DNA of 10,400 bases. It comes from JBDREC01 sp043820105 [NCBI: Pseudomonadota bacterium] (GTDB lineage: Bacteria; Bdellovibrionota_F; JAHFAK01). The notes under the pieces are model-generated. The model saw only the letters and a list, made by a program, of their open reading frames with translations. It was not told where the DNA came from and did no database searches. The position numbers and the translations under genes were made by a program. The first letter of the stretch is position 1. Every line of letters begins with the position of its first letter. The DNA lies in the NCBI GenBank assembly GCA_043820105.1, contig JBDREC010000026.1:1-10400 (forward strand), in the 5' to 3' direction. Of this stretch, positions 88-10,194 are shown one piece after another.

Positions 88-135
88 GTGGACCACTTTT
101 GCGTCCGATTCGTGGACCAGTTTTCAATCCGATTG
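88..135 (+). repeat. Two tandem 24-bp units, likely remnant of an IS21-type terminus
   Basis: Units at 88-111 and 112-135 match at 19 of 24 bases. Each begins GTGGACCA, continues with a TTTT run and ends in TCCGATT. Imperfect tandem repeats of this size, beginning near a TG dinucleotide, are typical of the multiple terminal transposase-binding sites of IS21-family elements. If that is right, the repeat orientation places the interior of the element to the right. There, however, tryptophanase homology starts at once, so only a terminal stub is left. No istA or istB coding sequence is seen. The family call rests on recalled end structure, not on an alignment. Confidence 0.45.
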
Positions 136-484
136 GCAAAAGCAAACTACAATCTTTTCACTGTAAAAGGTGAAGATGTTCTGATTGATCTTTTAATAGA
201 TAGTGGAACAAGCGCTATGATTAGCCAGCAATGGGCAGATATGATGAATGGAGATGAATGCTACTCAGGAAGCAAGAGCTTTTTTAGATTTGAAAAAGTC
301 GTAAAAGATATTATGGGCTTTGAACATGTCATCCCAACTCATCAAGGAAGAGCAGCAGAGAGAATTTTATTTACGATTATCGGCAATAAAACAAAGACAA
401 TCCCTCATAGCATTTTTACTAAAGAATTCAACAATGTATTATCCAAAGGCTTTATTCGATACAACTAATGATAGAAGGGAACAA
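136..484 (+). pseudogene. Tryptophanase / tyrosine phenol-lyase remnant
   Basis: The translation in the frame of position 136 carries the N-terminal signature of the PLP-dependent beta-eliminating lyases: ANYNLF, then GEDVLIDLLIDSGTSAM, QQWADMMNGDE, and the substrate/PLP-region motif PTHQGRAAER. Members are about 450-475 residues; here homology starts at about family residue 30 with no start codon of its own, directly after the 24-bp repeats. The frame ends at 468. The next expected motif, FDTT, appears in the following frame at about 455-466 (ALFDTTNDRREQ), so there is a frameshift or small rearrangement between about 410 and 455. Homology then stops, and the catalytic lysine and the C-terminal two thirds are absent. 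The gene cannot make an active enzyme. I cannot tell tryptophanase from tyrosine phenol-lyase from this piece. Confidence 0.85.
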
Positions 485-581: not shown

Positions 582-2174
582 ATGGTAAAAGCCATAAAGA
601 CTAAAAGAATATTTTTTATTTTACTCGTTATTTATATTTTATTTTCTCACTTGGAGTTTTTCTTACAGCCAGGTTATTATTCAGACACCATAGGCATTGC
701 TTTTAGCGAGGATGCTTATTATGCTTTAATTGTTTCAAAAAATATTATTAATGGTAATGGAATTAGCGCAGATGGAATAACCTTAACCAATGGATTTCAA
801 CCTCTATGGGTATTAATAGCCACTATTCCATATTTAATATTTACTACAGATTTTTGGCAAATCACGTCTATTTTATTTATCGGAATCCTCTTTTGGTTTT
901 TATCAGCAGCTATATTTTTAAAAATTATAAAAGAACTCTTAGGTTATGAAATTAAAAAAAATAATATAAAGACTTTTTATGCACTAGCTTTTTTCTTGTT
1001 TTTAACTGATATAAAAATCCAAGAATATTTTTTTAATGGACTTGAAACAGGACTTTATTGTTTCATGTTTTTATTTTTTGTCTATTTATGGATAAAGCAT
1101 TGGATACCAATCTTAAATTCTAAAAACATTAAAATAAAGTATGCTTTTGAGATTGGTCTTTATAGTGGAGTATTATTTTGGTGTAGAAACGATTCAGTTT
1201 TTATTATAGGTATATCCTTCGCTTTTTATTTCTATTATTTATTGAAATTAAAAATACAATTAACAAAGGTAATATTTACGTCCCTTATAATGTCTATTGT
1301 TACTATTTTTATATCTTCACCTTGGCTACTTTATAACATATTTTTAACTGGCTCTATTGTTCCTCAAGGTGGTTTAGCTACAAATTCTGGCCCATATTTA
1401 TTTCCTTTTGGAATTGATAAATTAAGCGAGGGATGGATACAAATGGCAAAGCTAATTATCTCACCCATATTACCAATTGGATGGTCAGGATACTCTATCT
1501 TTTTCTATCTTTCATTTTTCATATTATTTATTATTTTATATTTTTCAAAGAAACAAATTAACATGCTATCTAGGTCAAATAGATGTTTTCTAATATTTAT
1601 GAGTCTAGCTACTTTTCTATTAGCTTCATATTATTTTTTGTTTAGTGGCGCAACTTGGATGTTTCAAAGGTATTTTATGCCAGTTAAGATTTTGTTTCAA
1701 ATATTTTGGTGTTTCACTCTCCTATCGTTTTTGACAAGATTCAAACATTTGTCAAAAACAATAGTATTTGTACTTATCTTTGCCTTATTTTTTTGGAGTT
1801 CTTATCATACTGCTAAACGCAATAAATATCCCGAGAGGTATATGTCAGAAGAGCTAAAGTTTATCAGCAAGCTCTTAGAAAAAGAGGAATATTCAAAAAT
1901 TGGCATGTTTGAATCTGGAAGATTAGGATATGCATATCCCAATAATATTATTAATTTGGACGGAAAAGTTAATAAAGAAGCATTGAAAGCGATATCAGAA
2001 GAAAAGTTTGATGACTACTTATCAAAAGCTTCTTTTGATTCTATTCTCATAAAGCCATTTCATGAGAAATGGCTAGATTTGAAGTATCCTGAATGGAAAA
2101 TTAATTTCACAAGAGTTTATGACACTAATATAAAAGGGACTTCAATGCTATACAAAAAGAAGAATCTGAAATAA
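582..2174 (+). CDS. GT-C family membrane glycosyltransferase (PMT/ArnT-like)
   Basis: This is a polytopic inner-membrane protein of 530 residues with about ten hydrophobic segments spread from residue 10 to about 410. The first outside loop has an acidic pair in SEDAYY (about residues 42-47), followed by NGNG and TNGFQPLW. This arrangement is typical of bacterial GT-C enzymes that use polyprenyl-phosphate sugars, where the acidic pair is catalytic. The soluble C-terminus has GRLGYAYPNNIINLDGKVN, a pattern recurrent in this family. The substrate cannot be read from the sequence, and no glycan genes lie next to it. I choose ATG 582 because GAGG at 573-576 lies 5 nt upstream; an in-frame GTG at 576 overlaps that site. 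The gene is convergent with the histidine kinase and their 3' ends overlap by 58 bp. Confidence 0.8.
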   Translation: MVKAIKTKRIFFILLVIYILFSHLEFFLQPGYYSDTIGIAFSEDAYYALIVSKNIINGNGISADGITLTNGFQPLWVLIATIPYLIFTTDFWQITSILFIGILFWFLSAAIFLKIIKELLGYEIKKNNIKTFYALAFFLFLTDIKIQEYFFNGLETGLYCFMFLFFVYLWIKHWIPILNSKNIKIKYAFEIGLYSGVLFWCRNDSVFIIGISFAFYFYYLLKLKIQLTKVIFTSLIMSIVTIFISSPWLLYNIFLTGSIVPQGGLATNSGPYLFPFGIDKLSEGWIQMAKLIISPILPIGWSGYSIFFYLSFFILFIILYFSKKQINMLSRSNRCFLIFMSLATFLLASYYFLFSGATWMFQRYFMPVKILFQIFWCFTLLSFLTRFKHLSKTIVFVLIFALFFWSSYHTAKRNKYPERYMSEELKFISKLLEKEEYSKIGMFESGRLGYAYPNNIINLDGKVNKEALKAISEEKFDDYLSKASFDSILIKPFHEKWLDLKYPEWKINFTRVYDTNIKGTSMLYKKKNLK

Positions 2175-3835
2175 AACATGTCAGGAAAGCTTTTTGCAAA
2201 GTCTATTGATTCTTTTTTCACAAGTTCAATACAAGCATCCACCTTATCGGCGTCATATAACCTGATCACTTTACTTAATATGTCATTTTCTTCTATTGTA
2301 TTTCTTACGAATGCTCGATATAGTGTCTCATCTTCAAGTAGAACAACTTTAATCTTTTTTTGCTTTTCCAAGAAACTTAATTTTTCATCAGTATCTTCTT
2401 GCAAGGGTTCATATTTTACAAAAAGAATTTCATCTGTGTTTTTGGGAAGTACTTCTAAATTATGTTCATCAATTTCGTCTGATGCTGGGATAGTTATTAC
2501 AAACTCGACTCCACTTTTTGATTCAACTCTATTATCAACATTTCTAGCCTCTATTGTACCATTATGTAAAGTTACAATTTTATGGGCTGATGCTAGACCC
2601 AATCCAGTGCCAGACTTTTTGCCTTTTGTGAAAAAGGATTCGAATAGGTTTTCAATATCTTCATCTGGTATTTGTGGACCATTGTTACCAATCACGATTT
2701 CAATACAATTATTCTCATTTTTAGTAATGGTTTTTGCATAAAACCATACATTTTTATTTTCATTGTTCCCATAAGATTTTAACGCTTCAATTGCATTCCC
2801 AATTATATTGACAAAAACTCTCACCATTCTTTCATTATCTGCAAATGGTTTTAAATTATTTTCAATATTATATTCAAATGTAACAAATATATCCTTTTTA
2901 CCTTGAACTGCCTGCCTAACAGAAAAATCTATTAAACCAGATAAACCATTAGGACTAGTCTCGACCTCTACTTCTCTTGAAAAGTCTAATATGTCAGATA
3001 TCATGCTTTCAGCATGTGTAATTGTTTCATCAACCGTTGCTTTTGCCTTTTGCATCGAACTTGGATTATCTTTTATTTTATCTATCATAGAAAGCATAGA
3101 TTTCATACTTGTGAATGGCTTTCTTACATCATGTGCAAGTATTGAAGCTGTTTGACCTATAGCAGCAAGCTTTTCATTTTCCTTCCTTTCTCTAATCGCG
3201 ATGTTCAACTTTTCAATTAGATTAAAAACTGAACCATAGAGTTGCTCAGTATAGCTACACTGTAAATTATCCGGTTCTTTAGGGAAATGAGGGTTCGATA
3301 TATCAATATTATTAATATCATTTAGAAAATTAGAGATTGAAAAAGTAGTTTTATTAATAAAAAAATATCCTAAGATCAGTGTAATTATAAACAACCCTAC
3401 CAATAAAATTAGCATCAAAGATATTGGTATTATTTTAGGTTTTGTCAACGACTCTAAACAATACTCTAGCTTTCCAATTTTTTTATCAAACAAAGATATT
3501 GGTACAATATTAGGCGAATTTGAACAAGAAAATCGCTTATTTTCATCATCAGGAATTGTAATGAACACATCATTTTCTGAATAAATATTAATGTACTGTG
3601 TGTTTCCCAAAAGTAGAGTGTCATCAAAATAGCCAATAATTGAAGCCTTATCTTTAATTTTTAAAAATAACGCAATTTTATTTGCAGCTTGTACTGCACT
3701 TGCATTGTAAGTTGCTTTAATGATTTCATTTTGTTTTAAAAAATCACTATAAACAAGAAAACTACATGAACAAATTAGAAAAACGATTAGAATCATCATT
3801 ATTCCAAAAAATAATTTCCTTTTAAGAAACCTCAA
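2117..3835 (-). CDS. Membrane sensor histidine kinase with a severed receiver domain
   Basis: In order, the 572-residue product shows: transmembrane segment 1 at about 9-30; an extracytoplasmic sensor region at 31-135; transmembrane segment 2 at 136-160; a linker; an HisKA helix with H-box SILAHDVRKP (phosphoacceptor His235); N-box NIIGNAIEAL (345-352 region); a G1-like GNNGPQIP, where the usual Asp is Asn; an F-box around FFTKG; and G2 SGTGLGLA (408-415). A receiver domain then starts at KVVLLEDE (496-503), keeping the acidic pair. It loses similarity after about residue 546, just where the strand with the phosphorylated Asp should come. The last 25 or so codons are antisense to the 3' end of the glycosyltransferase gene. 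The start is TTG, supported by AGGAG 5 nt upstream. It is last in a five-gene operon, 11 bp after the acetyltransferase gene. No cognate response regulator is seen. Confidence 0.85.
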   Translation of the reverse strand: MRFLKRKLFFGIMMILIVFLICSCSFLVYSDFLKQNEIIKATYNASAVQAANKIALFLKIKDKASIIGYFDDTLLLGNTQYINIYSENDVFITIPDDENKRFSCSNSPNIVPISLFDKKIGKLEYCLESLTKPKIIPISLMLILLVGLFIITLILGYFFINKTTFSISNFLNDINNIDISNPHFPKEPDNLQCSYTEQLYGSVFNLIEKLNIAIRERKENEKLAAIGQTASILAHDVRKPFTSMKSMLSMIDKIKDNPSSMQKAKATVDETITHAESMISDILDFSREVEVETSPNGLSGLIDFSVRQAVQGKKDIFVTFEYNIENNLKPFADNERMVRVFVNIIGNAIEALKSYGNNENKNVWFYAKTITKNENNCIEIVIGNNGPQIPDEDIENLFESFFTKGKKSGTGLGLASAHKIVTLHNGTIEARNVDNRVESKSGVEFVITIPASDEIDEHNLEVLPKNTDEILFVKYEPLQEDTDEKLSFLEKQKKIKVVLLEDETLYRAFVRNTIEENDILSKVIRLYDADKVDACIELVKKESIDFAKSFPDMFYFRFFFLYSIEVPFILVS

Positions 3836-3846
3836 AATAGCTCCTA

Positions 3847-4590
3847 TTATTTTTCACTTAAATGTGATAATGGTACAACCAATAAATCACCTATAGAAGA
3901 AAAGCCAATACTGGGTAAAATTCTATTTTTCATTATTGAGTTTGGAGTGAAAACATATAGAGGAGAATTAGAGTATTGTGATATATATTTAATTAACTGT
4001 AAGCCAATAGATTTTTTTCTATACTCAGGAGTAACTGCAACGTTGAATAAAAAATCACCACCATCATTAGTTCTAAAAGTACTTGAGCATGCAATTAAAC
4101 TGTCTCTATCAAATACCAACCAATGATTGCTTTCATGATTTTTTGACAAAATCTGCAATCTATCATGAAAATACTCTGTTAATTCATCAGAAAATGAAAA
4201 TGCGTTTTTCATAATATTGCAAAATGCATCAAGTTCATTGTCATTCATGTATTTTTTGCATGTTATTTTAATTTGTACATCCTCAATTTTAGTTATTTTT
4301 TTTTCTAATTTCATGTAATGATATGAATATTTACAATCTCTAAGGTAACTATTATTAGTTGAAGCAATTAATCCTTCTAATCCTTTATTTCTATAGAATT
4401 CTTTTATATATTTTAGTTCTTTATTATCTGGTTCCTCTTTACAAGTAAGAGGATAGGCCATATTATAATATTGAGAATCTTTTATGCTGGGAGCGTAAAA
4501 TAATCTAAAGTTTTGAATCGTAATCGATTCGTTATAGTCAATGAATATTGATTGTTCTTGTTTTAACACATGAAGCATCTGTTCATTCAT
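3847..4590 (-). CDS. GNAT-family N-acetyltransferase
   Basis: This 247-residue protein has a GNAT fold in its C-terminal half. The acetyl-CoA-binding motif A is visible as NVAVTPEYRKKSIGLQLIKY (about residues 183-202), with the pyrophosphate-loop pattern R-x-x-x-x-G. Strand/helix motif B follows around YVFTPNSIMKNRILPSIGF. The first 100 residues match nothing I recognise and may form the substrate-binding part. ATG 4590 is chosen because GGAG at 4598-4601 lies 7 nt upstream. It overlaps the end of the preceding gene by 8 bp, implying translational coupling; an upstream in-frame ATG at 4617 has no such site. Its place in a peptide/radical SAM operon makes peptide acylation a reasonable guess, but the acceptor cannot be seen. 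Confidence 0.8.
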   Translation of the reverse strand: MNEQMLHVLKQEQSIFIDYNESITIQNFRLFYAPSIKDSQYYNMAYPLTCKEEPDNKELKYIKEFYRNKGLEGLIASTNNSYLRDCKYSYHYMKLEKKITKIEDVQIKITCKKYMNDNELDAFCNIMKNAFSFSDELTEYFHDRLQILSKNHESNHWLVFDRDSLIACSSTFRTNDGGDFLFNVAVTPEYRKKSIGLQLIKYISQYSNSPLYVFTPNSIMKNRILPSIGFSSIGDLLVVPLSHLSEK

Positions 4591-6043
4591 ATTTTTTCTC
4601 CAACCTAATATCTGCAAATTTAATAAATGTTGGTGATTTTACTCCAGTATTAATTATCTTCCAATCTTTTGAATAAATCAATGGTTGTTTTGGATGAAAT
4701 AAAGGCAATGCAGTATATTGTAACACAATATCTTCATGTAATTCGAACATATGTTGAGCATATTCGCTATAGCTTAACGCATTGTTTAAAAGTTTATATT
4801 TTTCAATAGTTTTCTTATTGAATGGATCACCAACCGTATTCTTTATATTTGGATGAAAGAATTGTAATACATCCAAGTTTTCCTCTACCTCCAGATACCC
4901 AAACATTAGTTCAGCATTATTATTGTACCATTCCTGCAGTGCGTCTTCAACATCTAATATTTTGGTTTCAATTTTAATATTATTTTTTCGAAAAATGCCC
5001 TCAAAATATGATTTAACACATTCCTCTTGACCAGATCCTTTATGTATAAGTATTCTAATTCCATTTTTTGAATCGTATGTACCTAGATCTTTGCTAATAA
5101 TTTTCTTGTTACCGAAATGACCTAAAATACCATGTGGTATTATATTGTCCGTAATAATGTTACCAGGATAACAATTTGAAACCAATTCGTACCGATTTAT
5201 AAAGCTAACCAAAGACTTCCTCGCCTTTAAATCTCTAAACCGAAATGGATTCAAGTAAATAATATAAGTCTTTGCAGTATTAATAAAATGAATTTTTGCA
5301 TTCTTTGTTATATTATTAATTTCCGAACTAGTTATATAATACATGAACAGATCATTGTAAATATTACTATTAAATCCATTTATTGCATCTAGTTTTGAAG
5401 CTTTAGAAAAAGTTATTCTTGAAACTAAGTTTTCAGATTTATCTTTGCTATTTAGTATAATTTTATTTTGTGTTTTTTTTGAAATATAGTATTTTCCCAA
5501 GCCATAAATCTGCTGACCGTCTCTCAAAACTATTGACAGCCTATAATCAGAAAGATTATATATTAGCCTCGGAAAGGGTTTAGTTAAAATTATTTCAAAG
5601 GATTGGTTATCAATTACTCTAATACCACTTATATTTTTTTGCAATCCTTTTAAGAATAATTCAACTCCCCTGATAATAGACAACTTTTCATATCCTGGTA
5701 TTCTTCTGCTTATTGCATGCTCTAAACTAGATTTAACAATTCTTGAAGTAAGTGGTAGTCCATTTTTAAAAGTCAAATCAGATAAGTAGAATGTATACTT
5801 TTTTTGATTCTTTGAAACTTTAAAATCTTTTAAAAGTATAGGAATAGGAATATTTTTGTTGCTAATAGCAAATAAAGGAGAATGAATTTGAATAATAAGA
5901 TTTGCACTGAATATATCTTCAGATTCAACAGGATCAAGAGATTTATCTTTTGGAATTACTTGAACAGGATGCGTAATTTCAAATCCCAAAATTAATTTTA
6001 TTGAAAATATAAAAATTCCTATAATAAAACTTATATTCTTCAT
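4583..6043 (-). CDS. Family 5 extracellular solute-binding protein (peptide-binding type)
   Basis: The predicted product has 486 residues. It begins with a signal peptide (MKN, then a hydrophobic run to about residue 20) without a lipobox cysteine, so it is probably a free periplasmic protein. The family pattern appears at about residues 80-115 (strand-rich KKYTFYLSDLTFKNGLPLTS, then SSLEHAI), as in OppA/DppA-like proteins. The C-terminal half keeps the usual length and ends with LPLFHP and a final hydrophobic strand. ATG 6043 lies 5 nt after the radical SAM stop codon; an in-frame GTG at 6052 would overlap that stop as GTGA. Both have weak ribosome binding sites. No permease or ATPase genes accompany it, so it may present a ligand to the sensor kinase or bind the operon's own peptide instead of feeding a transporter. 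That role is inference. Confidence 0.75.
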   Translation of the reverse strand: MKNISFIIGIFIFSIKLILGFEITHPVQVIPKDKSLDPVESEDIFSANLIIQIHSPLFAISNKNIPIPILLKDFKVSKNQKKYTFYLSDLTFKNGLPLTSRIVKSSLEHAISRRIPGYEKLSIIRGVELFLKGLQKNISGIRVIDNQSFEIILTKPFPRLIYNLSDYRLSIVLRDGQQIYGLGKYYISKKTQNKIILNSKDKSENLVSRITFSKASKLDAINGFNSNIYNDLFMYYITSSEINNITKNAKIHFINTAKTYIIYLNPFRFRDLKARKSLVSFINRYELVSNCYPGNIITDNIIPHGILGHFGNKKIISKDLGTYDSKNGIRILIHKGSGQEECVKSYFEGIFRKNNIKIETKILDVEDALQEWYNNNAELMFGYLEVEENLDVLQFFHPNIKNTVGDPFNKKTIEKYKLLNNALSYSEYAQHMFELHEDIVLQYTALPLFHPKQPLIYSKDWKIINTGVKSPTFIKFADIRLEKKYE

Positions 6044-6048
6044 TTTTA

Positions 6049-6938
6049 TCACTTAATATTTCTATTCAAAATTATGTCTTCACATAGCTCACAATGTGAG
6101 GAATATTGAGGATTTAAGCCTTGACTTGAATACTCAATTCCTTTTTCTAAAAGCCTTTCTCTAAATGTTTTTCTTGTTACTTCATTATAGAAATTTGAGT
6201 TAAGGTGATACTTAAATTTACATGAAGATATATTTTCTATATTTTCACTTTTAATATTGAATAGAATATTGGAACAACAAACACTATAACCCTTTTCAGG
6301 ATAATATGACAAGGTCCCAGAGTTAGGACAAACTTGATCTAATACACCTGGATCAAAACTTTGATATTTAAAATAACTTTCAGTTTCTTTTGCACGACCA
6401 CTTGCTGTGACTTTTTGAATAATAACTTTAATATTAAATTCGGATGCCAAATCATCTATTTCAGTCAATTCTAAAGGAGAGGTAATGCACACAACAAATA
6501 GTAATTCAATATTCCTTTCCTTACAATAATTTCCTTACAATAATTTTTTAATTCATGAAGATTATTTTTATTGCAACGAATTTTATGAAACCTATCCAGT
6601 GAAAGTTGAATTCTGTTTACCTTAACAAGAGAATTAAAAATTTCTTGAAATTGATTCTTATTTTCTAAAAACCAACCATTTGTAGTAATTGTTACATTGT
6701 AACAAAAGTCTTCGATATTTTGCAAGATACTATTTATCGAACTTAAGAAGAAGGTTGGTTCTCCACCAGTAAATAACAAAGTCTTGGGTCTTAAGAAATT
6801 AACATCATCTGATATTGTCTCTATTTCACGTTTAGTAATTTTTTCTTTTCGATTTGGACCACAACTTCCAGCACAATGTTTGCAAGACAAGTTGCAATAC
6901 ATTCCTGGCATAATTTGAATTGTATCTATTTCTTTCAT
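6049..6938 (-). pseudogene. Radical SAM enzyme (peptide-maturase-like), split by a 14-bp duplication
   Basis: The N-terminal frame has the 4Fe-4S/SAM motif CNLSCKHC (Cys15, 19, 22; CX3CX2C), with an extra Cys26. It continues with TGGEP (57-61), TTNGW (85-89) and QLSLDRFH (111-118), all ordinary radical SAM landmarks. The C-terminal part, in another frame, adds more cysteines (VCP, 15 residues later VCCSN, then SSCKF and HCELCED), suggesting an auxiliary cluster of SPASM/twitch type. The frames differ because of a tandem 14-bp repeat at 6517-6544. With one copy removed, the reading passes as HELKNYCKERNIELLFVV into the second frame, giving 291 residues. As it stands, translation ends at 6471 after about 20 wrong residues. 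The gene may be newly broken, switchable by slippage, or a sequencing or assembly error. It starts 36 bp after the small-peptide gene, and its ribosome binding site is weak. Confidence 0.85.
6517..6544. repeat. Exact 14-bp tandem duplication inside the radical SAM gene
   Basis: TTCCTTACAATAAT occurs at 6517-6530 and again at 6531-6544 with no mismatch. Fourteen is not a multiple of three, and subtracting 14 from the 446-nt offset between the two half-frames gives 432, an exact multiple of three. The duplication alone therefore explains the split of the radical SAM gene. Confidence 0.95.
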
Positions 6939-6974
6939 TTTGAAAATAACCTAATAGTAAAAATTCTAATAAAT

Positions 6975-7190
6975 TTACGTTTCTCTTGTATCATCTGTGA
7001 TCGTTTGAAATGCCAATCTAATAGACTTTTCAATTTTAGGATTAGAAATGCTATTATTTAATTTATTTAAATCAATGATGTTTAGAGAGCCAACAAAGTT
7101 CATAGCAGCAAATGGTGTAATAAAAATACCTAGTGTTATTAATCTTTTCACCAAATTTTTTTTTAGCAATTTCTTTTCACTTTTAGACAT
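6975..7190 (-). CDS. Small 71-residue peptide, candidate RiPP or signal-peptide precursor
   Basis: The product has a strongly basic N-terminus (MSKSEKKLLKKNLVKR), a hydrophobic stretch LITLGIFITPFAAMNFVG (residues 17-34), an Asn/Ile/Leu-rich middle and a polar C-terminus ending in TDDTRET. It has no Cys, Trp, Tyr or His. The first half could be a secretion signal (FAA before MNF is a possible signal-peptidase site) or a membrane-active segment. GGAGG 6 nt upstream of the ATG is the strongest ribosome binding site in the operon, as expected for a peptide made in excess over its enzymes. It is the first gene behind the promoter at 7253-7281, with the radical SAM gene 36 bp downstream. I do not recognise a family; the precursor role rests on size, position and translation signals. 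Confidence 0.6.
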   Translation of the reverse strand: MSKSEKKLLKKNLVKRLITLGIFITPFAAMNFVGSLNIIDLNKLNNSISNPKIEKSIRLAFQTITDDTRET

Positions 7191-7252
7191 TAGTAACCTC
7201 CAATAATTTATTAATAATTAAAAGAAAGTAATTTTTTTTTATCTAAGAATTT

Positions 7253-7955: not shown

Positions 7956-8882
7956 CTAATTTAGCTGATTTAAATAATTAGAAAGGTTTTGCAATTGCTC
8001 TTGATGCTTAGTTTTATCCATCTTCTCAATATTGTGAATTTTCCATTTAACTCCAGGTAGCTTGGAAAAATTTCCCAGGCCTAATAAATTCCAATCTATT
8101 TCTTCTTGTTTCTTAAAATCAAGAAGAAATTTTTTTTCTTCATTTGTTAAAGTTTTTCTTATCAAACATGGCAGATTGATTTGTATATCCTCCAAATCTT
8201 TTAATGACACTTGTGCTCTGGTCATTCCCCTAAATTCCCTTTCATACACATTAGAAATATCCAAAATATTTGGATTTAATAGTTCGATAATTGGCCTGTT
8301 AGATTGAATAAGATATAGTAAAAATGTTTTTCTCAAAAGGTCTGAAATGCCTTCGTTTTCGAGTAATAATTTAATATCAAACAAGTCTCTTGGGTGCTGT
8401 CTATCCAGTGCAGCACATATTTTTCCTGCATAAATATCTTCAAAAGATAATACTTTCATTTTACAAGACATTTTAAATTCATCTTCTACATTTTTCTTAG
8501 TTTTAAGCAAAAATGGTTTATTAGCAGAACCTCGAATTATAAGGTTAACTTCTAATTTTATTAAAATATTATCTAAATTTAATATTAATCCTTTTAGAAA
8601 ACTTGATTTGCCTATTGTTTTAAAATTAAACCTTGCGGATGGAAAATAATGTGAAACTTGTTTTGATAAATCTTTTATGTTGCTTGTAATCTTATTAAGA
8701 CTTTCATCCCTTTCTTGTATAGGGAGATAGCATAAGTCAATATCAACAGATAGTCTTGGCAAATCCCTTATAAAATAATTTATTGCTGTCCCACCTTTTA
8801 ATGCAAAATCTTCATATTCATTTAAAAGAGGCAAAACTTTCAGCAAAAGTTCAACTTGTCTATTGTAAGAAATATTTTTCAA
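7956..8882 (-). CDS. abiEii: AbiEii-type nucleotidyltransferase toxin
   Basis: This 308-residue protein belongs to the AbiEii (formerly DUF1814) branch of the DNA polymerase beta-like nucleotidyltransferases. These are toxins of type IV toxin-antitoxin and phage abortive-infection systems, and members of the family can block growth reversibly. Visible motifs are LKGGTAINYF (28-37), then PRLSVDIDL with the paired metal-ligand residues Asp47 and Asp49. KLEVNLIIRG around 109-118 offers the third acidic residue, and YAGKICAALDRQHPRDLFDI (151-170) is the C-terminal family motif. Length and motif order are normal, so it looks intact. It starts with TTG, overlapping the antitoxin stop as TTGA; GAGGTG lies 5 nt upstream. 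The terminator at 7890-7926 ends the operon. Confidence 0.9.
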   Translation of the reverse strand: MKNISYNRQVELLLKVLPLLNEYEDFALKGGTAINYFIRDLPRLSVDIDLCYLPIQERDESLNKITSNIKDLSKQVSHYFPSARFNFKTIGKSSFLKGLILNLDNILIKLEVNLIIRGSANKPFLLKTKKNVEDEFKMSCKMKVLSFEDIYAGKICAALDRQHPRDLFDIKLLLENEGISDLLRKTFLLYLIQSNRPIIELLNPNILDISNVYEREFRGMTRAQVSLKDLEDIQINLPCLIRKTLTNEEKKFLLDFKKQEEIDWNLLGLGNFSKLPGVKWKIHNIEKMDKTKHQEQLQNLSNYLNQLN

Positions 8883-9670
8883 AAAAGCACCTCATCATCT
8901 TCATTAATTTCCTTTGGCACGGTTATTTGATATTTCCTGTTCAAGGTTCCACCTTTTACAATTTCTCGGTTTCCCTTTCCAAAGTCAATTTTTGATAAAT
9001 CCAAAGTTTTTACCCAATCAAAATTATATTTTTCAGCATAATACATAAATAGCCTTTTTGCTTTCACTGAATTACAATTTTCAAGAAGTTTTTGAACCAG
9101 ATCTGCTCTTAGATAATATAGACCTTCCATTAACAAAGCCGCTTCTTCAAAACTTTGCTTCTTTGGCAATAAATGCATCATTTCAATAGCCGCTCTTTCT
9201 TGTGAGGAGATCCTTATTGAATATTGACTGGAAACATCAAAAGAAATTAAACCCTCATCGTAGTTATTACTAAATAAATTCGTAGCGAAAAATGATATTC
9301 TCACATTCCATTTATAAGTCCTAAACCACTGAGGCAATTTGGTTCTGGCAGAAGAAAATAAAAATATTTCTGGTAGCTCCTGACTCAAATAATGAGCATG
9401 CCCGCCTAGCTGAAAGACTGTTTTAGCACCAACATGAACATCCAACTTTGAATGGTGCTGCAAAGCATACAAGCCGCCAGACCAGTTTATTTTATCCTTA
9501 TTTAATTTATAAGCACCTCTACCAACTTGCTCAAGCCACATGCTTTTTACATATTTGTGAATTAAGTCCTTACTATAACCCTTGGTTTGTAAATATTTCA
9601 AAGTACTTACAGATCCCCTAGGCCAATTTTCCAACAGCAGCTTTATTTTTGTTCTTTTTAGCTTACTCAT
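8879..9670 (-). CDS. abiEi: AbiEi-type antitoxin / transcriptional regulator
   Basis: The 263-residue protein has an N-terminal winged-helix region. SVSTLKYLQTKGYSKDLIHKY is the likely recognition part, and WLEQVGRGAYKL is the wing, typical of AbiEi antitoxins. The C-terminal antitoxin domain includes SAQERAAIE-like ISSQERAAIEMMHLLP and a C-terminal KYQITVPKE segment. AbiEi proteins repress their own operon by binding repeats in the promoter and neutralise AbiEii without forming a stable complex. ATG 9670 is preferred over ATG 9679 because 9679 lies inside the -10 box of the promoter. The predicted transcript starts at or within a base of 9670, so translation would be leaderless. The gene overlaps abiEii by 4 bp. 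Confidence 0.88.
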   Translation of the reverse strand: MSKLKRTKIKLLLENWPRGSVSTLKYLQTKGYSKDLIHKYVKSMWLEQVGRGAYKLNKDKINWSGGLYALQHHSKLDVHVGAKTVFQLGGHAHYLSQELPEIFLFSSARTKLPQWFRTYKWNVRISFFATNLFSNNYDEGLISFDVSSQYSIRISSQERAAIEMMHLLPKKQSFEEAALLMEGLYYLRADLVQKLLENCNSVKAKRLFMYYAEKYNFDWVKTLDLSKIDFGKGNREIVKGGTLNRKYQITVPKEINEDDEVLF

Positions 9671-9677
9671 AATACAC

Positions 9678-9706
9678 ATAATAGATTAAATATAAACACA
9701 AGTCAA
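9678..9706 (-). promoter_or_regulatory. Near-consensus sigma70 promoter of abiEi-abiEii
   Basis: On the minus strand, TTGACT (9706-9701) and TATTAT (9683-9678) are separated by exactly 17 nt. Counting 7-8 nt from the -10 box puts the start of transcription at 9671-9670, the first base of the abiEi ATG. No clear inverted repeat for AbiEi binding was found overlapping it. Confidence 0.75.
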
Positions 9707-9921: not shown

Positions 9922-10194
9922 TTATGTGAAATTAGTGCCAGAGCATATTATAAGAGCATTGGGATCACAAACAAGATATTTATCAACCTTATCATGGATA
10001 ATATTTACCATCCATTGGGCCATTGGTCCCTCTTCAAAAGTAATACTTTTTTTACCCTTTATTGAACCAATATATTTTAAAACCATCAGCTCACTTGTAG
10101 AAACTGTCTCTGTCTCCAATAACTTGCCTCTTAAGTTAATTCTTGAAAAAGTTATTGACTTTGAATGCAAATCTGCTCCAATATAACTATTCAT
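9922..10194 (-). pseudogene. IS110-family transposase, N-terminal fragment
   Basis: The 90-residue reading frame begins MNSYIGADLHSKSITF, the characteristic start of IS110-family transposases, with the first catalytic Asp of the DEDD RuvC-like domain at residue 8. FEEGPMAQWM (about 54-63) supplies the expected Glu, and LVCDPNALI (about 78-86) matches the conserved strand before the missing part. Full-length members have roughly 300-400 residues, so the other two Asp residues and the C-terminal serine domain are lost. AAGGAGAG lies 5-6 nt upstream of ATG 10194, so the start is sound. The break coincides with a 25-bp direct repeat. No target duplication or right end of the element was found. 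Confidence 0.85.
9927..9951. repeat. Direct repeat, copy 2 of 25 bp, at the transposase truncation point
   Basis: The second copy of the 25-bp repeat coincides with the last readable codons (ICSGTNFT) of the IS110-type fragment. This suggests that the pair arose from the event that broke the transposase gene. Confidence 0.85.

What the first reader, a model, noticed from the sequence alone, without database searches (positions are those of the whole stretch)
2117..7190. Five-gene operon combining a small peptide, radical SAM enzyme, peptide-binding protein, acetyltransferase and sensor kinase
Seen: five same-strand genes with gaps of 36, 5 and 11 bp and an 8-bp overlap, one promoter, and the best ribosome binding site on a 71-residue peptide gene that comes first. 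Known: small peptide genes next to radical SAM enzymes often encode RiPP precursors, and family 5 binding proteins can take up or present peptides to sensing systems. Inferred: the peptide is modified by the radical SAM enzyme, perhaps also acylated by the GNAT, exported, and read by the binding protein and kinase. No protease, ABC exporter or permease is present, which sets it apart from the classic RiPP loci I know (for example YydFGHIJ-type). I do not recognise this set as a named system.
Basis: partly seen in the sequence, partly recalled or inferred. Interest (0 to 1): 0.75.

Follow-up and report, generated by a model that had tools for sequence, protein, structure and literature searches.

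The report
Secreted modified-peptide signalling operon, decayed copy
The window holds a damaged copy of a gene set shared by two bacterial phyla that appears to make a secreted, chemically altered small peptide and to sense it through a peptide-binding protein and a kinase, a candidate cell-to-cell signalling system for which I found no description.

Summary
The five genes and their spacing are as described; the promoter is not above chance. The set is conserved. The same radical SAM family occurs in 17 of 368 genomes of the best relative's phylum and in 15 of 247 of a second, Elusimicrobia by record title. A family-5 binding protein follows in 40 of 40 loci with sequence beyond the enzyme, a kinase in 31 of 33 testable ones. 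A short ORF with signal-peptide-like start lies upstream in 39 of 39, with related leaders and variable or repeated tails. The enzyme matches the epimerase EpeE over its length, catalytic cysteine included in 37 of 42 rows. A GNAT-like protein was recognised in 23 of 42 loci. A 2'-deoxyguanosine riboswitch precedes the peptide in 13 of 19 Elusimicrobia-type loci. Sister operons carry YcaO-like or no enzyme. Best reading: an epimerised peptide pheromone sensed by binding protein plus kinase. The window's enzyme is frame-broken and its kinase probably truncated. Function rests on comparison only.

The parts
7197..7201 (-). ribosome binding site GGAGG of the precursor gene
   Evidence: sequence
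6975..7190 (-). precursor peptide gene, 71 aa, Lys-rich N-terminus and hydrophobic stretch, no Cys
   Evidence: phmmer over 5915 ORFs: the first 7 hits after itself are all radical-SAM-adjacent precursors (L095 1.6e-3, L146 2.8e-3, L128 6.2e-3, the rest 0.12-0.34; L095/L146 and L102/L104 are near-copies), first other ORF 0.35
7083..7130 (-). leader motif GIFITPFAAMNFVGSL, resembling GxF....A..[YF]V..L of relatives
   Evidence: alignments; with a leader profile built without the window its own score is not significant (E 2.5, rank 29)
6978..7028 (-). predicted core/pheromone region, about the last 17 residues (KSIRLAFQTITDDTRET)
   Evidence: inference from hypervariable or repeated C-termini of relatives
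6471..6938 (-). radical SAM enzyme, N-terminal piece with CxxxCxxC
   Evidence: PF04055 3.9e-9; TIGR04078 YydG is the best NCBIfam match at 1.9e-15, far below its cut-off
6049..6492 (-). radical SAM enzyme, C-terminal piece in another frame, with the CC pair and CxxC
   Evidence: aligned to intact relatives
6516..6543 (-). 14-bp tandem duplication at the frame break
4583..6052 (-). family 5 solute-binding protein, predicted peptide binder (alternative start 6043)
   Evidence: PF00496 4.7e-17; model pLDDT 84; best PDB match OppA with a PhrE-derived pentapeptide, 1.6e-29
3847..4617 (-). GNAT-like protein (likely start 4590)
   Evidence: PF00583 1.5e-6; 31.9% to L097 and 25.5% to L147 GNATs, E 7e-47 and 7e-32, in the same gene order
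2117..3835 (-). sensor histidine kinase, probably truncated inside its first receiver-like domain
   Evidence: HisKA 2.8e-8 and HATPase_c 3.7e-19; alignment with six relatives of 696-719 aa
2117..2174 (.). overlap of the kinase 3' end with the convergent gene 576-2174, possible rearrangement junction
   Evidence: coordinates; alignment; inference

Best explanation
The locus is a degenerate member of a peptide-signalling operon family. As inferred from intact relatives: a secreted precursor (signal-peptide-like start, related leader, variable C-terminal core) is modified in the cytoplasm by an EpeE-like radical SAM enzyme, most likely by turning one or more L-residues of the core into D-residues. 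In about half of the loci a GNAT-like partner, sometimes fused to the enzyme, may add a second change. The peptide leaves by Sec, is cut to its core, and is bound outside the inner membrane by the OppA-type SBP, which hands the signal to the partner kinase (LuxP-LuxQ-like logic). Core hypervariability and several copies per genome point to strain-specific pheromones. In Elusimicrobia-type genomes a 2'-deoxyguanosine riboswitch, predicted ON, controls the peptide. Shown: gene conservation, leader relatedness, epimerase fold with donor cysteine, riboswitch and terminator. Inferred: chemistry, export, sensing, output. In the window the enzyme is frame-broken and the kinase probably truncated, so this copy is probably inactive.
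For: Distribution: 17 of 368 genomes with a near-full-length match (20 of 368 at E<=1e-15, three of them only N-terminal) and 15 of 247. In a third phylum the matches were N-terminal only (4 of 247, 6 of 297, 4 of 198: overlapping samples of one phylum); in a fourth 0 of 175. Neighbourhood: SBP on the same strand in 40 of 40 loci, kinase in 31 of 33, precursor-type ORF in 39 of 39, against an SBP in 1 of 26 comparison radical SAM loci, 12 of them under 3.6 kb. Precursors: leader 50.0% versus core 15.3% mean identity, core below leader in 135 of 135 pairs; repeats in L011, L093, L094. Epimerase: profile hits EpeE 8ai6 at 4e-18 over positions 12-280, next family 3.4e-6; fold 4.3e-16, next 1.3e-8; the C223A chain 8ai3 differs from wild type at the residue aligned to C218, Cys in 37 of 42 rows. 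SBP fold. Riboswitch in 13 of 19 loci, ON-type terminator in 13 of 13 of these. Sister operons with YcaO-like or no enzyme.
Against: No experiment. EpeE Asp210 is not conserved (Asp in 8 of 42 rows). TIGR04078's cut-off is not met (57 of 300 bits, N-terminal piece alone). Five of 42 rows lack the donor Cys. With a leader profile built without it, the window peptide is not significant (E 2.5). GNAT-like genes were recognised in only 23 of 42 loci; the window-type GNAT links to one of the three other groups at 55% and to two at under 1%, and 0 of 9 proteins of other types pass a Pfam GNAT cut-off. The SBP fold also matches metal-chelate binders. No dedicated protease or exporter was seen among 11 window proteins. 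Neighbouring sbp and kinase genes are not always functionally linked (PMC11113362 abstract). No riboswitch in the window or in 9 loci of the L011 phylum. Two loci with room lack the kinase (L107, L137).
Confidence: 0.6

Rival explanations
1. The peptide is an epimerised antimicrobial (epipeptide-type bacteriocin), and SBP plus kinase sense it for autoinduction or self-protection.
For: EpeE, the closest characterised enzyme, makes a membrane-active peptide (PMC8326336 passages); hypervariable tails also fit an arms race.
Against: No exporter or immunity gene among the window proteins scanned. Tails of the Elusimicrobia-type precursors are short and many hold acidic residues, by eye unlike membrane-active peptides. 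The SBP fold is that of peptide carriers.
Confidence: 0.2
2. SBP and kinase sense outside nutrients or prey peptides; precursor and radical SAM make an unrelated product such as a cofactor or envelope peptide.
For: SBP-kinase pairs often sense nutrients (recalled; GABA-binding SBPs next to kinases in PMC11113362 abstract); the SBP model also matches CntA and NikA; kinase missing in L107 and L137.
Against: Near-fixed linkage in two phyla; parallel operons pair related SBPs and kinases with another small ORF and a YcaO-like or no enzyme; cofactor precursors are not known to me for hypervariable or tandem-repeated cores (recalled).
Confidence: 0.13
3. The window's set is only a decayed relic or assembly artefact with no function here, whatever the family does.
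For: Frame break at a 14-bp duplication, probable kinase truncation, tryptophanase fragment in the same window.
Against: Peptide, SBP and GNAT frames are intact; a duplication could be an assembly error; some relatives have kinases shorter than the window's (441-571 aa). This rival concerns the copy, not the family, and is compatible with the best explanation.
Confidence: 0.55

Closest known systems
Epipeptide operon epeXEPAB (yydFGHIJ) of Bacillus subtilis, enzyme EpeE/YydG
   Same: Short precursor gene followed by a radical SAM enzyme of the same fold, with RS-cluster cysteines and, in 37 of 42 rows, a Cys at the H-donor place.
   Different: No EpeP peptidase or EpeAB exporter (roles recalled) seen in the window; adds SBP and kinase and often a GNAT; precursors have signal-peptide-like starts and hypervariable or repeated cores; EpeE Asp210 not conserved.
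LuxP-LuxQ and other SBP-histidine kinase sensors (recalled; SBP-kinase neighbours discussed in PMC11113362 abstract)
   Same: Periplasmic binding protein gene next to a membrane kinase gene.
   Different: The SBP is OppA-type (family 5) and the signal is predicted to be a ribosomal, enzyme-modified peptide encoded in the same operon.
Enterococcal PrgZ-cCF10 and OppA-Phr peptide uptake in Gram-positives (biology recalled)
   Same: SBP of the same fold that binds peptide pheromones (OppA with PhrE peptide rank 1, PrgZ rank 31; PrgZ best by sequence).
   Different: There the SBP serves import to a cytoplasmic receptor; here no permease lies in the operon and a kinase follows.
Nisin-type lanthipeptide autoinduction and streptococcal RaS-RiPP/Rgg-SHP circuits (recalled; titles and abstract starts)
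   Same: RiPP genes tied to a peptide-sensing regulator.
   Different: The kinase or Rgg senses directly; no SBP-kinase pair; different enzymes; Gram-positive hosts.
2'-dG-II riboswitch class (RF03165)
   Same: Aptamer above gathering score ahead of 13 precursor genes.

Membership tests
EpeE/YydG radical SAM peptide epimerase | RS cluster motif CxxxCxxC | tested here: met
   C15, C19, C22 in 40 of 42 rows, 2 cut off at that end; present in the window N piece
EpeE/YydG radical SAM peptide epimerase | H-atom donor Cys223 | tested here: met
   Cys in 37 of 42, window included; Ser in L098, Asp in L136b, L141, L142, L143
EpeE/YydG radical SAM peptide epimerase | second [4Fe-4S] cluster ligands | tested here: inconclusive
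   C200 and C217 in 42 of 42, C272 and C275 in 41 of 42; ligand roles not examined
EpeE/YydG radical SAM peptide epimerase | Asp210 of EpeE | tested here: not met
   Asp in 8 of 42 at the aligned place; Gly in the window (and the alignment)
EpeE/YydG radical SAM peptide epimerase | TIGR04078 curated score | tested here: not met
   57.1 bits for the N piece against a cut-off of 300; an intact relative was not scanned
EpeE/YydG radical SAM peptide epimerase | makes D-residues | not testable with these tools
   needs expression and mass spectrometry
epeXEPAB epipeptide operon | peptidase EpeP and ABC exporter EpeAB | tested here: not met
   none among the 11 window proteins scanned; relatives' wider neighbourhoods not scanned for them
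RiPP precursor-enzyme pair | precursor with conserved leader and variable core beside the enzyme | tested here: met
   39 of 39 loci have the ORF; leader 50.0%, core 15.3% among 17 Elusimicrobia-type precursors; leader link across phyla significant or marginal for 9 hits, not for the window
SBP family 5 (cluster C) | PF00496 above gathering score and OppA-type fold | tested here: met
   62.6 bits against 32.4; fold matches
SBP-coupled sensor kinase (LuxPQ-like) | physical SBP-kinase interaction | not testable with these tools
   adjacency only
2'-dG-II riboswitch-controlled operon | RF03165 match upstream | tested here: not met
   none in the window or in 9 loci of the L011 phylum; met in 13 of 19 Elusimicrobia-type loci

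The most novel reading that the evidence does not exclude
A cross-phylum class of peptide-pheromone systems in Gram-negative-type bacteria whose signals carry D-amino acids (or, in sister operons, YcaO-made or no modifications) and are read by OppA-type binding proteins coupled to kinases. In Elusimicrobia-type genomes it is switched on by free 2'-deoxyguanosine together with a ComEC-like metallo-beta-lactamase-domain protein, so that DNA debris or lysis would trigger peptide talk between kin.
Probability: 0.4. Interest if true: 0.92.

Novelty: new variant of a known kind. Interest (0 to 1): 0.8.

Why it matters
Peptide pheromone circuits are best known from Gram-positives, and radical SAM epimerases from antimicrobial or toxic products (recalled; the second also in PMC8326336 passages). 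A conserved operon that joins an EpeE-like epimerase, a precursor with a signal-peptide-like start and variable core, an OppA-type binder and a kinase would be a signalling architecture that I did not find described in the listings (one open-access library; several listings show only the top of longer lists). It gives a direct assay: does the SBP bind its own modified core? It also suggests a role for 2'-dG-II riboswitches beyond DNA processing genes, and that RiPP enzymes (radical SAM, YcaO-like) may be interchangeable parts of one sensing module.

Tried and rejected
Finding relatives: full-length radical SAM queries found nothing in genome contigs or viral contigs, nor the kinase in viral contigs, probably because the scan needs exact 8-residue matches; a 50-residue N-terminal query succeeded. 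Plasmid and phage searches gave only distant radical SAM, SBP and kinase relatives and no DNA match in plasmids. Viral radical SAM loci L001-L008 were not followed beyond two ORF lists and the comparison.

Considered and dropped: viperin-type defence (PADLOC 1.6e-10, matching only residues 14-119); ArsS and MoaA (below curated cut-offs); [quoted passage not shown]

Mistake corrected: the first leader profile wrongly included the window peptide because of a name-sorting slip; one search repeats it without. The window then drops from E 6e-14 to 2.5; only one search is used.

Not resolved: the host of the window (no genome held); the name of L011's phylum (record title says Deltaproteobacteria); the output of the kinase; the role of the GNAT; whether L081 (N-terminal match, SBP nearby) is a diverged member. 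In the comparison loci a kinase homologue lay in 2 of 26 (L015, L047), so a kinase nearby alone means little.

Full report
OBSERVATION. The five minus-strand genes and their spacing are as stated. Pfam supports radical SAM, SBP_bac_5, GNAT and histidine kinase; the 71-residue peptide matches no family in Pfam, NCBIfam, PHROGs or PADLOC at the limits used. The promoter is not above chance (34 sites against 36.6). The radical SAM gene is broken between two frames at a 14-bp tandem duplication. The kinase probably ends inside its first receiver-like domain, and its last 19 codons are antisense to the end of the convergent gene 576-2174. Intact copies of the enzyme exist in relatives.

RELATIVES. 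One scan of GTDB genomes with 50 residues of the enzyme gave 49 loci. Against the window enzyme halves two stood out: L011 (Deltaproteobacteria M0603) and L012 (Elusimicrobia), 35-39% over both halves. L011 carries precursor-type ORF, enzyme, GNAT-like gene, SBP and the start of a further gene that may be the kinase (not scored); L012 carries small ORF, enzyme, SBP and kinase. A profile of the three (A1) was run over 368 genomes of L011's phylum: 20 matched at E<=1e-15, of which three (G035, G056, G328) matched only N-terminally, leaving 17 (G194's match starts at a contig edge). A 15-row profile without the window (A5) over 247 genomes of L012's phylum matched 15 genomes at 20 places. In another phylum, sampled three times with overlap, matches covered only the N-terminal part (model positions up to 187): 4 of 247, 6 of 297, 4 of 198. 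In a fourth there was none, 0 of 175. The tool scored only part of the first-look candidates in many genomes, so these counts are lower bounds.

NEIGHBOURHOOD. I read L011, L012, L090-L109 and L128-L147, 42 loci beside the window; L095, L146 and L147 are contigs of one genome, and L102/L104, L106/L107 and L141/L142 are near-copies. L144 and L146 end inside the enzyme. In the other 40 of 40, an SBP homologue (profile E<=1e-3) follows on the same strand, at most about 3.1 kb away (L139). A kinase follows in 31 of 33 loci with room: L137 has none, and in L107 a transposase-like gene (by eye) follows the SBP. Seven further loci end too early to tell (L092, L095, L101, L102, L106, L109, and L011). 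As a comparison, an SBP homologue lay in 1 of 26 other radical SAM loci, 12 of them shorter than 3.6 kb; that one, L081, may be a diverged member; a kinase homologue lay in 2 of 26. GNAT-like proteins were recognised in 23 of 42 loci: between enzyme and SBP, after the SBP as in the window, L097 and L147, or fused to the enzyme's C-terminus (L103, L105, L108, L109). HHalign links the pre-SBP groups to each other at 99% and to the fusions at 87%, but the window-type group only to one of them (55%), and to the other two at 0.2% and 0.1%. Outside the window type, 0 of 9 proteins scanned pass a Pfam GNAT cut-off; L097 and L147 do. So these may be two or more unrelated GNAT recruitments. L012 and L100 have a PF00144 serine hydrolase beside the enzyme (4.6e-66 and 2.5e-36); in L012 it is on the other strand. 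In an unrooted enzyme tree of 40 rows the window pairs with L095 (98/88), whose genome has the order enzyme-SBP-GNAT-kinase on L147; L012 falls with L011 (80/91), apart from the 18 other Elusimicrobia-type rows.

PRECURSORS. All 39 loci with sequence upstream of the enzyme hold an ORF with a signal-peptide-like start (by eye) that ends less than 30 nt before the enzyme or overlaps it (by 54 nt in L141 with the longest start), except L129, L130, L132 and L135 (about 45-197 nt). A leader profile from 17 Elusimicrobia-type precursors, run over 5915 ORFs, put nine precursors of the other phylum next (ranks 18-26, E 3.5e-4 to 0.14); the window was rank 29, E 2.5, not significant, and several other precursors scored no better than chance. 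The window peptide used alone found seven precursors before any other ORF (best 1.6e-3). Among the 17, mean identity is 41.6% for enzymes, 50.0% for leaders (first 40 columns) and 15.3% for cores over 135 pairs (one near-identical pair left out), core below leader in 135 of 135. L011 has three copies of RA(M/D)RAVAATM; L093 and L094 have four I(A/S)W units each, by a pattern chosen after seeing them. Two genomes hold three copies each with different cores.

ENZYME. The A1 profile matches EpeE (YydG) of B. subtilis over nearly its whole length at 4e-18, the next family at 3.4e-6. The model of L011's enzyme (pLDDT 92) has EpeE chains as its nine best PDB matches (best 4.3e-16), then 1.3e-8. The 8ai3 chain, titled C223A, differs from wild type at the residue aligned to our C218. 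A review gives Cys223 as the proposed H-atom donor and says that the alpha-carbon radical ends in epimerisation when an enzyme Cys answers it and in a thioether when a precursor Cys does (PMC8326336, passages). C218 is Cys in 37 of 42 rows. Three of the five exceptions (L141-L143, close relatives) have cores with two Cys, which hints at thioether chemistry there; but other precursors with one Cys go with enzymes that keep C218. Asp210 of EpeE is not conserved (Asp in 8 of 42). The window peptide has no Cys, so a thioether to a Cys of it is not possible.

SENSOR. The window SBP model (pLDDT 84) resembles OppA, MppA and DppE; the best match is OppA with a PhrE-derived pentapeptide, and PrgZ is rank 31. 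Metal-chelate binders of the same fold also match (CntA, NikA), so the fold alone does not prove a peptide ligand. Complete kinases of relatives range from 441 to 747 aa. Those of 696-719 aa in the alignment end in two receiver-like stretches by eye; Pfam did not name these. A published warning holds: neighbouring sbp and kinase genes are not always linked (PMC11113362, abstract).

REGULATION IN ELUSIMICROBIA-TYPE GENOMES. A 2dG-II aptamer (61.7-85.6 bits, threshold 60) precedes the precursor in 13 of 19 loci; of the six misses, L145 has no upstream sequence, L128 has 104 nt and L131 157 nt, while L012, L133 and L137 had room. In 13 of 13 an intrinsic terminator starts 7 nt inside the P1 3' strand, so ligand binding should prevent termination (own script). 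RF03165 occurs in 58 of 247 genomes of that phylum (53 over the family's cut-off), among them all 15 with the enzyme family, against 43 of 232 others; kinship is not controlled. Among 20 other sites read (chosen by me from seven enzyme-positive genomes), four precede a protein with a ComEC-like motif (only L192 was scanned: PF00753, 5.8e-15), four precede peptide-SBP-kinase operons, three of these with a YcaO-like gene (PF02624 3.6e-7 over the cut-off; 8.5e-4 and 2.3e-3 below it), and twelve precede other genes, several of them secreted-looking proteins of unknown function. In three of the four operons the kinase is cut by the end of the fetched stretch. The SBP profile recognises three of these four SBPs (not L186's) and the kinase profile all four kinases. 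[quoted passage not shown] The window and nine loci of L011's phylum have no Rfam hit at gathering thresholds.

VERDICT. The conservation is well supported, the precursor-enzyme pairing strongly so, and the epimerase chemistry likely. Signalling is the best of several readings, and the window's own copy is probably inactive. The literature search covered only open-access PubMed Central papers: listings (several showing only the top of longer lists), passages of one review and two research papers and one abstract. I found no description of this gene set there.

Noticed in passing
window 7956-8882 and 8879-9679 (-): AbiEii/AbiEi toxin-antitoxin type pair (PADLOC 3.4e-106 and 3.3e-83), overlapping by 4 bp.
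   Followed up: no
window 88-468 (+): N-terminal fragment of tryptophanase (NCBIfam 1.5e-38), matching only profile positions 30-125 of 463.
   Followed up: no
window 9922-10194 (-): 90-aa ORF that looks like an IS110-type transposase N-terminus (recalled; no library match below E 0.05).
   Followed up: no
L178-L197: 2dG-II riboswitch regulon in Elusimicrobia-type genomes: ComEC-like MBL proteins, a CAAX-protease gene after a secreted-looking ORF (L178, Rce1-like 6.2e-16), peptide-SBP-kinase operons.
   Followed up: partly
L180 195-3551, L186 177-3651, L185 208-3601, L187 1-3414: Sister operons with small signal-peptide-like ORF, SBP and kinase that have a YcaO-like protein (L180, L186, L185) or no recognised modifying enzyme (L187) in place of the radical SAM enzyme.
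   Followed up: partly
L141-L143: Enzymes with Asp in place of the donor Cys go with precursors whose cores hold two Cys, a hint of a switch from epimerisation to thioether formation.
   Followed up: partly
L100 8149-9552 (-), L012 4869-6236 (-): PF00144 serine hydrolase (family that includes D-stereospecific peptidases, recalled) beside the enzyme where no GNAT-like gene was recognised.
   Followed up: no
L130 7991-8024, L132 and L135 gaps: Strong intrinsic-terminator-like hairpins between precursor and enzyme genes in 3 of 12 gaps tested (weaker in L129 and L136, none in the window), as if the peptide were made in excess.
   Followed up: no
L136 8006-10287 (-): Two radical SAM genes flank one precursor; the upstream one has Asp at the donor place.
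   Followed up: no
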